From: Candidatus Actinomarinales bacterium
GTDB taxonomy: Bacteria > Actinomycetota > Acidimicrobiia > Actinomarinales > Actinomarinaceae
Length of the DNA stretch: 41,697 bases
Direction of reading: 5' to 3'
Assembly: GCA_004214055.1 (NCBI GenBank)
Contig: SGYT01000004.1
Location: 1-41,697 of the forward strand
In this document: positions 41,144-41,697 of the stretch, in pieces
How positions within the stretch are numbered: position 1 is the stretch's first letter
Layout of the letters: each line of letters begins with the position of its first letter
Translations under genes and position numbers: made by a program
Notes under the pieces: generated by a model
Told to the model about the DNA's origin: nothing
Seen by the model: the letters and a program-made list of their open reading frames with translations, nothing else
The model's database searches: none

Positions 41144-41485
41144 ATGAATGGTATACGAGGCGCAATTGCAACAGTAAAAAATAATAAAGAAGATATTATT
41201 GAATCTTCGAAGCATTTATTCTCTGAAATAATAGAAAAAAATAATTTAGATCCAAAAAAAATTGTTTCTGTTGTATTCACTACAACTCATGATTTAACAG
41301 AAGCATTTCCAGCAAAAGCTATAAGAGATTTAGGATATGAATACATTTCAGCAATAGATACTTTAGCTCCAAATATTTCTTCAGATATAGATGGTTGTAT
41401 AAGAGTTTTAGTCATATACAGTGAAGAAATCGAAGTTATACATGTCTATCTAAATGATGCAAAAAATTTGCGTCCAGACAGGTAA
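41144..41485 (+). CDS. aroH: Chorismate mutase, AroH family
   Basis: MNGIRGAIATVKNNKEDI; VFTTTHDLTEAFPAKAIRDLG; CIRVLVIY. Confidence 0.93.
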   Translation: MNGIRGAIATVKNNKEDIIESSKHLFSEIIEKNNLDPKKIVSVVFTTTHDLTEAFPAKAIRDLGYEYISAIDTLAPNISSDIDGCIRVLVIYSEEIEVIHVYLNDAKNLRPDR

Positions 41486-41493
41486 AAATCTAT

Positions 41494-41522
41494 TTGCAAA
41501 CTAGTTATACCTGCTAATATAA
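41494..41522 (+). promoter_or_regulatory. Putative promoter for the aroF leader
   Basis: TTGCAA (41494-41499); TG-C-TAATAT extended -10 (41512-41520), alternatively ATATAA (41517-41522) with 17-nt spacer. Confidence 0.55.
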
Positions 41523-41527
41523 ATTCA

Positions 41528-41572
41528 ATGAAATTAAACAACACATACTTTTACTTTATCGAGCACATATAA
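41528..41572 (+). CDS. Aromatic-amino-acid attenuator leader peptide MKLNNTYFYFIEHI
   Basis: 14-codon ORF with Tyr-Phe-Tyr-Phe run, stop 2 nt before the antiterminator strand, upstream of terminator and aroF. Confidence 0.85.
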   Translation: MKLNNTYFYFIEHI

Positions 41573-41573
41573 G

Positions 41574-41622
41574 TTGCCCTAAAGTTACGTTGTGTGAAAT
41601 CGGGCAAAGGCCCGATTTTTTT
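41574..41622 (+). promoter_or_regulatory. Attenuator: antiterminator strand plus intrinsic terminator before aroF
   Basis: TTGCCC (41574-41579) complements GGGCAA (41602-41607); terminator AAATCGGGC (41597-41605) / GCCCGATTT (41610-41618) with T run 41616-41622. Confidence 0.85.
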
Positions 41623-41636
41623 ATTTAGGAGGAAGA

Positions 41637-41697
41637 TTGATAGTAGTAATGAAACAATCGGCAACTGAAGAAGATGTCGAAAGAATTAAGTCTAAAG
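41637..41697 (+). CDS. aroF: 3-deoxy-7-phosphoheptulonate synthase (DAHP synthase), 5' fragment
   Basis: TTG start after AGGAGG; MIVVMKQSATEEDVERIKSK resembles N-terminus of AroF-type DAHP synthase; truncated by window end. Confidence 0.7.
   Translation, partial: MIVVMKQSATEEDVERIKSK

What the first reader, a model, noticed from the sequence alone, without database searches (positions are those of the whole stretch)
41528..41636. Ribosome-mediated attenuator with a Tyr-Phe-Tyr-Phe leader peptide upstream of a DAHP synthase gene
Seen directly: a 14-codon ORF ATG AAA TTA AAC AAC ACA TAC TTT TAC TTT ATC GAG CAC ATA TAA (MKLNNTYFYFIEHI) ends 2 nt before TTGCCC (41574-41579). TTGCCC is exactly complementary to GGGCAA (41602-41607), which is the 5' strand and loop of the terminator hairpin (41597-41618, T run to 41622). 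The terminator sits 5 nt before the AGGAGG of the DAHP synthase start. Geometry fits classic attenuation: a ribosome stalled on the Tyr/Phe codons leaves TTGCCC free to form the antiterminator, while one finishing at TAA covers TTGCCC and lets the terminator form. Comparable logic is established for pheA and trp leaders; a mixed Tyr/Phe leader on the entry enzyme of the shikimate pathway matches its end products. Regulation itself is inference.
Basis: partly seen in the sequence, partly recalled or inferred. Interest (0 to 1): 0.85.

Follow-up and report, generated by a model that had tools for sequence, protein, structure and literature searches.

The report
Tyr/Phe leader-peptide attenuator before aroF
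In a tiny-genomed ocean bacterium (Candidatus Actinomarina), a 14-codon mini-gene rich in tyrosine and phenylalanine codons most likely acts as a sensor that lets the first gene of aromatic amino-acid synthesis be read only when those two amino acids run short; the mechanism is a known one, but this conserved example had not been described in the papers I could search.

Summary

The window is the end of a contig from a Candidatus Actinomarina genome. Gene order is aroH (chorismate mutase) – leader – aroF (type Iβ DAHP synthase) – tyrA. The leader occurs once in every genus genome whose aroF start is assembled: 33 genomes, 26 distinct leader sequences. Peptides read MK..N(N)x(Y/F)FYFxxHI*. Within the ORF, length differences are whole codons. 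Tyr-to-Phe swaps keep the aromatic run.

- A protector hairpin (1:2) folds in 26/26 leaders.
- An extended −10 promoter sits 7–8 nt before the ATG with no ribosome-binding site, so the leader peptide is probably translated from a leaderless mRNA.
- In silico, the antiterminator forms only when a ribosome stands at or near the Tyr/Phe codons, and vanishes at the stop codon.

Compensatory base changes are absent because the helices barely vary. No expression data exist.

The leader has no Trp codon, and the genus lacks any chorismate-binding enzyme (published as Trp-auxotrophic).

The closest known system is AroR–aroF of Corynebacterium glutamicum (Phe-Tyr-Phe leader). This is a new member of a known kind. 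A looser pattern, Trp codons in aroF leaders only where Trp is made, deserves a test.

The parts
41144..41485 (+). aroH, AroH-type monofunctional chorismate mutase, ends 42 nt before the leader ATG
   Evidence: TIGR01796 96.2 bits over cut-off 82; PF07736 115 bits
41493..41498 (+). candidate -35 element TTTGCA, 16 nt before the -10
   Evidence: read from the sequence; TTTGCA/TTGGCA/TTTGTA-like in most relatives
41512..41520 (+). candidate extended -10 (TGC TAATAT), 7 nt before the leader ATG, which places the transcription start at or next to the ATG
   Evidence: TGnTAnnAT in 25 of 26 distinct leaders (TGnTAnnnT in 26), always 7-8 nt before the ATG; start site inferred, not mapped
41528..41572 (+). 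leader ORF MKLNNTYFYFIEHI*, probably leaderless (no Shine-Dalgarno)
41546..41557 (+). regulatory codons TAC TTT TAC TTT (Tyr-Phe-Tyr-Phe)
   Evidence: (Y/F)FYF in 26 of 26; Tyr codons TAC 44: TAT 1 in leaders against 48: 123 in the downstream aroF genes
41542..41547 (+). outer 5' arm of protector hairpin 1:2 (CACATA), pairs with 41591-41596
   Evidence: register differs between clades
41553..41558 (+). inner 5' arm of hairpin 1:2 (ACTTTA), overlaps the last two regulatory codons, pairs with 41580-41585
   Evidence: 98% of cells paired in 26 leaders; folded in each
41574..41579 (+). antiterminator 5' arm TTGCCC (region 2)
   Evidence: GCCC invariant in 26; pairs with 41602-41607
41580..41585 (+). 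inner 3' arm of hairpin 1:2 (TAAAGT)
41591..41596 (+). outer 3' arm of hairpin 1:2 (TGTGTG)
41597..41618 (+). intrinsic terminator hairpin (AAATCGGGC aaag GCCCGATTT), region 3:4; T run to 41622
   Evidence: region 98% majority-conserved
41602..41607 (+). GGGCAA, region 3, shared by antiterminator and terminator
41627..41632 (+). Shine-Dalgarno AGGAGG of aroF
   Evidence: kept or nearly kept in relatives
41637..41697 (+). aroF start (TTG), type I-beta DAHP synthase, truncated by the contig end
   Evidence: full-length orthologues TIGR01361/PF00793/PF18152

Best explanation
The segment is a classical ribosome-mediated transcription attenuator that controls aroF (and tyrA behind it) by the supply of charged tRNA-Tyr and tRNA-Phe. 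Transcription probably starts at the A of the leader ATG, so the ribosome begins on a leaderless mRNA. When Tyr-tRNA and Phe-tRNA are plentiful, the ribosome runs to the stop codon and covers TTGCCC. The GGGC strand then pairs with the downstream GCCC, the terminator forms and RNA polymerase stops before aroF. When either tRNA is short, the ribosome stalls on TAC/TTT, covers the 5' arm of the 1:2 hairpin and frees TTGCCC. TTGCCC pairs with GGGCAA (the antiterminator) before the terminator's second arm is made, and aroF is transcribed. With no ribosome on the leader, including on read-through RNA from aroH, the 1:2 hairpin holds region 2 and the terminator forms. Shown here: the parts, their conservation and the in-silico switch. 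Inferred: the start site, translation of the leader, tRNA sensing and the effect on transcription.
For: Conserved in every genus genome where the aroF start is assembled. Within the ORF, length differences are whole codons, while the spacer after the stop has a single-base indel. The YFYF-to-FFYF change takes two bases in most cases and keeps an aromatic codon. TAC is used almost exclusively although the aroF genes prefer TAT. The 1:2 hairpin folds in all 26 distinct leaders. Probability of the 2:3 pairing, averaged over 26 leaders, for six footprint assumptions: 0.02 without a ribosome, 0.74-0.99 with the A site on any of the four Y/F codons, 0 at the stop. Every genome has the terminator with its T run and then a ribosome-binding site. 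The same genus has a second leaderless leader-peptide attenuator before ilvB. The AroR (Phe-Tyr-Phe) leader controls aroF in C. glutamicum by stalling under Phe limitation (PMC11802643, PMC4046766).
Against: No compensatory change was seen in either the 1:2 inner helix or the 2:3 helix. The outer 1:2 helix shifts register between clades, and a permutation test of its coevolution, not corrected for phylogeny, is only modest (p 0.014). The antiterminator is short (4-6 bp, -6 to -11 kcal/mol) against a terminator of about -14, so the model depends on kinetics. In the window's own sequence the 1:2 hairpin lacks its closing G-C pair and is weaker than in relatives. No transcript, start site or expression data were available for this uncultured genus.
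Confidence: 0.88

Rival explanations
1. The hairpin is simply the intrinsic terminator of aroH, and the short ORF is fortuitous; aroF has its own promoter elsewhere.
For: The hairpin does lie between aroH and aroF and would stop read-through from aroH in either case.
Against: The ORF's frame, aromatic codons and stop position, and the non-coding GCCCTAAAG between stop and terminator, are conserved across 26 distinct leaders, whereas the spacer after it is only 76% majority-conserved. The extended -10 promoter is 7-8 nt before the leader ATG in all of them. There is no room for another promoter between the T run and the ribosome-binding site.
Confidence: 0.04
2. The leader works through peptide-specific ribosome arrest (a free-amino-acid or drug sensor, as in TnaC-like systems) or slow release at HI-stop, rather than by starvation for charged tRNA.
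For: The last two residues His-Ile are invariant in 26 of 26, and the only changes there are synonymous (CAC/CAT) or stop-to-stop (TAA/TAG), which suggests some constraint on the end of the peptide.
Against: Stalling at the end would cover TTGCCC and favour termination. The aromatic run is conserved in kind rather than letter (YFYF or FFYF), and its Y/F content matches the products of the pathway.
Confidence: 0.05
3. Control is by another RNA element (T-box or riboswitch) or by an RNA-binding protein acting on the same terminator.
For: T-box control of the same gene occurs elsewhere: a Selenomonadaceae relative (L175) has a T-box before its DAHP synthase.
Against: No Rfam family reaches its gathering score in the Actinomarina leaders. 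The leader is about 95 nt from ATG to T run, too short for a T-box plus terminator.
Confidence: 0.03

Closest known systems
AroR-aroF attenuator of Corynebacterium glutamicum (Neshat et al. 2014, cited in PMC11802643; first seen in PMC4046766, 2013)
   Same: Actinobacterial; leader peptide with Phe-Tyr-Phe before a DAHP synthase gene; ribosome-mediated attenuation, with increased expression under Phe limitation reported.
   Different: Actinomarina leader is Tyr/Phe-Phe-Tyr-Phe with a His-Ile end; aroF is followed by tyrA, with aroH upstream. C. glutamicum makes Trp, Actinomarina does not. Sequence homology of the two leaders was not tested (sequence not at hand).
uORFC-13-1 motif before aroF in Acholeplasma (PMC8632094)
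   Same: Short ORF with Phe codons and an intrinsic terminator before the same gene.
   Different: Different phylum and motif; described with a ribosome-binding site and a U run coding for at least one Phe.
E. coli pheL-pheA and trpL-trp attenuators
   Same: Leader peptide with end-product codons, regions 1-4, terminator/antiterminator switch.
   Different: Here the entry enzyme of the whole pathway is controlled, with mixed Tyr/Phe codons and a probably leaderless leader ORF.
ilvBNC leader of Corynebacterium (ilvB-II motif, PMC10272879; leader peptide without ribosome-binding site, Morbach et al. 2000, cited in PMC4046766)
   Same: Leader peptide translated without a Shine-Dalgarno sequence, attenuation of an amino-acid gene.
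   Different: Branched-chain amino acids; its counterpart in Actinomarina is the separate ilvB leader found here.

Membership tests
Classical ribosome-mediated transcription attenuator | Short ORF with a run of codons for the pathway's end product | tested here: met
   (Y/F)FYF in 26/26 leaders
Classical ribosome-mediated transcription attenuator | Intrinsic terminator between the ORF and the structural gene | tested here: met
   termination itself not measured
Classical ribosome-mediated transcription attenuator | Antiterminator mutually exclusive with the terminator and masked by a ribosome at the stop codon | tested here: met
   GGGC shared; simulated pairing 0 at stop, high at Y/F codons; in silico only
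Classical ribosome-mediated transcription attenuator | Protector hairpin 1:2 overlapping the regulatory codons | tested here: met
   no compensatory changes
Classical ribosome-mediated transcription attenuator | Compensatory base changes in the antiterminator | tested here: inconclusive
   GCCC/GGGC core invariant; outer U-A pairs lost in 8 and 2 of 26 leaders, no both-side changes
Classical ribosome-mediated transcription attenuator | Leader ORF is translated and termination responds to tRNA charging | not testable with these tools
   needs expression data
AroR-aroF attenuator (C. glutamicum) | Leader with Phe-Tyr-Phe upstream of DAHP synthase in an actinobacterium | tested here: met
   FYF in 26/26, DAHP synthase downstream; published description
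AroR-aroF attenuator (C. glutamicum) | Common descent of the leader with AroR | not tested
   AroR sequence not available here; no similar leader in 38 other Acidimicrobiia aroF upstream regions of usable length, so independent origin is possible
Leaderless-mRNA leader peptide | Promoter -10 placed so that transcription starts at the ATG, no Shine-Dalgarno | tested here: met
   TGnTAnnnT 7-8 nt upstream in 26/26; start site not mapped
T-box leader | Match to Rfam RF00230 | tested here: not met
   no match in the window or in L004, L012

The most novel reading that the evidence does not exclude
The amino-acid content of aroF leader peptides follows which aromatic amino acids the cell still makes: Trp codons are kept only where chorismate can go to Trp, and leaders of Trp-auxotrophic lineages such as Actinomarina sense Tyr and Phe alone. 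Among the 16 genomes with aromatic leaders that I checked outside Actinomarina, the six with a Trp codon all have chorismate-binding enzymes and the ten without have none, like all 42 Actinomarina genomes. These are only about two versus five independent lineages, one of the ten leaders (L201) is a weak candidate, and C. glutamicum AroR (described as Phe-Tyr-Phe, in a Trp maker) may be an exception.
Probability: 0.35. Interest if true: 0.55.

Novelty: new member of a known kind. Interest (0 to 1): 0.38.

Why it matters
Candidatus Actinomarinales are abundant, uncultured, extremely streamlined ocean bacteria described as having little regulatory capability (PMC7771536). An attenuator kept throughout the genus on the entry enzyme of aromatic synthesis, and a second one on ilvB, suggest that they do keep end-product control in a form that costs about 100 bases and no protein. 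The leader holds exactly the two aromatic amino acids the pathway still makes, which gives a sequence-only readout of auxotrophy that can be tested across phyla.

Tried and rejected
- T-box or other catalogued RNA element: no Rfam match at gathering score.
- Covariation as proof of the helices: inner 1:2 and 2:3 helices barely vary and the outer helix changes register, so column-wise counts are uninformative. A cognate-versus-swapped duplex test gave only p 0.014 without correction for phylogeny.
- Ancestry of the leader in other Acidimicrobiia: 39 aroF upstream regions examined (one only 4 nt long) had no Phe/Tyr-rich short ORF, and one had a weak terminator-like match. The nearest relative G044 has aroH and aroF about 60 nt apart with no leader.
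- Attenuators before pheA and leuA in the same genus: none seen; both lie directly behind other genes.
- The first version of the ribosome scan measured the wrong 1:2 pairs; it was corrected, and the 2:3 values were essentially unaffected.
- Shuffled sequences produced no terminator at all, so they gave no useful chance rate.

Full report
What was checked. Two spacings were off by one base. Of 200 shuffles of the region, one folds as well (z -3.2).

Where it is. The window is contig C32 of a 747-kb, 78%-complete genome. Named relatives of its aroF gene are mostly Candidatus Actinomarina single-cell genomes and MAGs. Upstream lies aroH, a monofunctional chorismate mutase. The contig ends 20 codons into the downstream gene. 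In relatives, that gene is a full-length type Iβ DAHP synthase with its ferredoxin-like domain, followed directly by prephenate dehydrogenase.

Conservation. A pattern for the leader's core hits once in each of 33 of 42 genus genomes, and its reversed control hits none. Eight of the nine genomes without it have no DAHP synthase hit, and the ninth has only the 3' part at a contig end. So no assembled aroF start in the genus lacks the leader. The leaders give 26 distinct sequences. Peptides are MKLNNTYFYF(S/R/G/I)EHI, MKLNN(A/V)YFYF.., MKLNNTFFYFSEHI, MK(I/T)NTYFYFR(A/L)HI, MNLNNTYFYFSEHI and MKTMNTFFYFSEHI. Length differences within the ORF are whole codons, while the spacer after the stop has a single-base indel. 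Tyr codons in the leader are TAC 44: TAT 1, against 48: 123 in the aroF genes. This fits a constraint on the bases, since the second TAC lies in the 1:2 hairpin.

Anatomy. It folds in each of the 26 leaders. The antiterminator TTGCCC/GGGCAA is 4 to 6 bp, with its GCCC/GGGC core invariant. The terminator is about -14 kcal/mol. An extended -10 promoter (TGnTAnnnT) lies 7 or 8 nt before the leader ATG in all 26, with no ribosome-binding site there. Transcription should therefore start at or next to the ATG, and the leader ORF should be translated as a leaderless mRNA. That is an inference, but leaderless mRNAs are common in actinobacteria (33% of mRNAs with mapped starts in C. glutamicum, PMC3890552). 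The ilvBNC leader peptide of C. glutamicum is reported to form without a ribosome-binding site (Morbach 2000, cited in PMC4046766).

How it switches. I blocked the bases a ribosome would cover and folded the transcript up to the terminator loop, for every codon position, every leader and six footprint lengths. With no ribosome, the 1:2 hairpin dominates (0.94) and the antiterminator is near 0. With the A site on any of the four Tyr/Phe codons, the 1:2 hairpin is gone and the antiterminator averages 0.74 to 0.99. At the last codon it is 0.07 or less, and at the stop it is 0. The window's own copy has a weaker 1:2 hairpin, because codon 11 reads ATC where relatives have AGT/AGA/AGC/GGA. This lies near a contig end and could be a real variant or an assembly fault.

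What it senses. Tyr and Phe only; no leader has a Trp codon. No genus genome has any chorismate-binding enzyme (PF00425, 0 of 42, against 14 of 14 control genomes). trpE was not found in the eight genomes searched. The published genome survey calls the order consistently auxotrophic for tryptophan (PMC7771536). Prephenate dehydratase is present in all eight genomes searched, and prephenate dehydrogenase sits behind aroF. The aromatic codons in the leader are thus those of the two aromatic amino acids the pathway still makes.

A second case in the same genus. ilvB is preceded by MKNLAVFISVLVLLLI-like leaders, again starting 7-8 nt after TATAGT, with a hairpin starting at the stop codon and a CCTCCC/GGGAGG-type terminator. 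The window's own genome has it too (L226). The architecture is therefore not a one-off.

Comparison with known systems. The AroR leader of C. glutamicum contains Phe-Tyr-Phe before aroF, and stalling raises transcription under Phe limitation (PMC11802643; PMC4046766). Acholeplasma has a uORF motif before aroF (PMC8632094). A 2005 survey of Actinobacteria found no conserved RNA structures for Phe or Tyr operons (PMC1262725). My literature search found no report for Actinomarina. It works like these attenuators and meets every sequence feature that defines them, except covariation, which was uninformative. Common descent with AroR was not tested.

Limits. There are no expression data, no mapped start sites and no compensatory changes. 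The conclusion rests on conservation, geometry and precedent.

A wider pattern. Aromatic leader ORFs precede DAHP synthase genes in Clostridia, Oscillospiraceae, Synergistota (Pyramidobacter), Lentisphaeria, Planctomycetota and Solirubrobacterales. The six genomes whose leader has a Trp codon all have chorismate-binding enzymes; the ten whose leader lacks it have none. Independent lineages are few and completeness of these genomes is not given, so this is a lead.

Noticed in passing
L226 (G000:C34, upstream of ilvB) and L220-L225: A second, branched-chain-rich leader peptide (e.g. MKKLEILITLLVLVLM*) starts 7-8 nt after TATAGT and is followed by a stop-codon hairpin and a terminator before ilvB, in seven Actinomarina genomes including the window's own.
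   Followed up: partly
L182-L184, L205, L206, also L172, L176, L185, L186, L207 (300 nt before aroF): Most Solirubrobacterales/Thermoleophilaceae aroF genes examined have an aromatic leader ending in a Trp-containing motif close to the stop (mostly W-R-F-x-stop), followed by a G+C-rich inverted repeat without a T run; not in Rfam at gathering score for those scanned.
   Followed up: partly
L189, L194, L169 (Clostridia), L209, L210 (Oscillospiraceae), L196, L197 (Pyramidobacter), L195, L208 (Lentisphaeria), L193 (Planctomycetota): Phe/Tyr-rich leader ORFs, followed by intrinsic-terminator-like hairpins, before DAHP synthase; only the Planctomycetota one has Trp.
   Followed up: partly
42 genus genomes: No chorismate-binding enzyme (TrpE, PabB, isochorismate synthase) found anywhere in the genus; trpB only as below-cut-off relatives of about 460 aa.
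   Followed up: partly
L175, 444-680: A Selenomonadaceae relative has a T-box before the same gene.
   Followed up: no
window 41558-41560: Codon 11 is ATC where relatives have AGT/AGA/AGC/GGA; this removes the closing G-C pair of the 1:2 hairpin in this genome only.
   Followed up: no
window 41564-41569: His-Ile at the end of the leader peptide is invariant in 26 of 26, with only synonymous changes (CAC/CAT) and TAA/TAG stop changes; unexplained.
   Followed up: no
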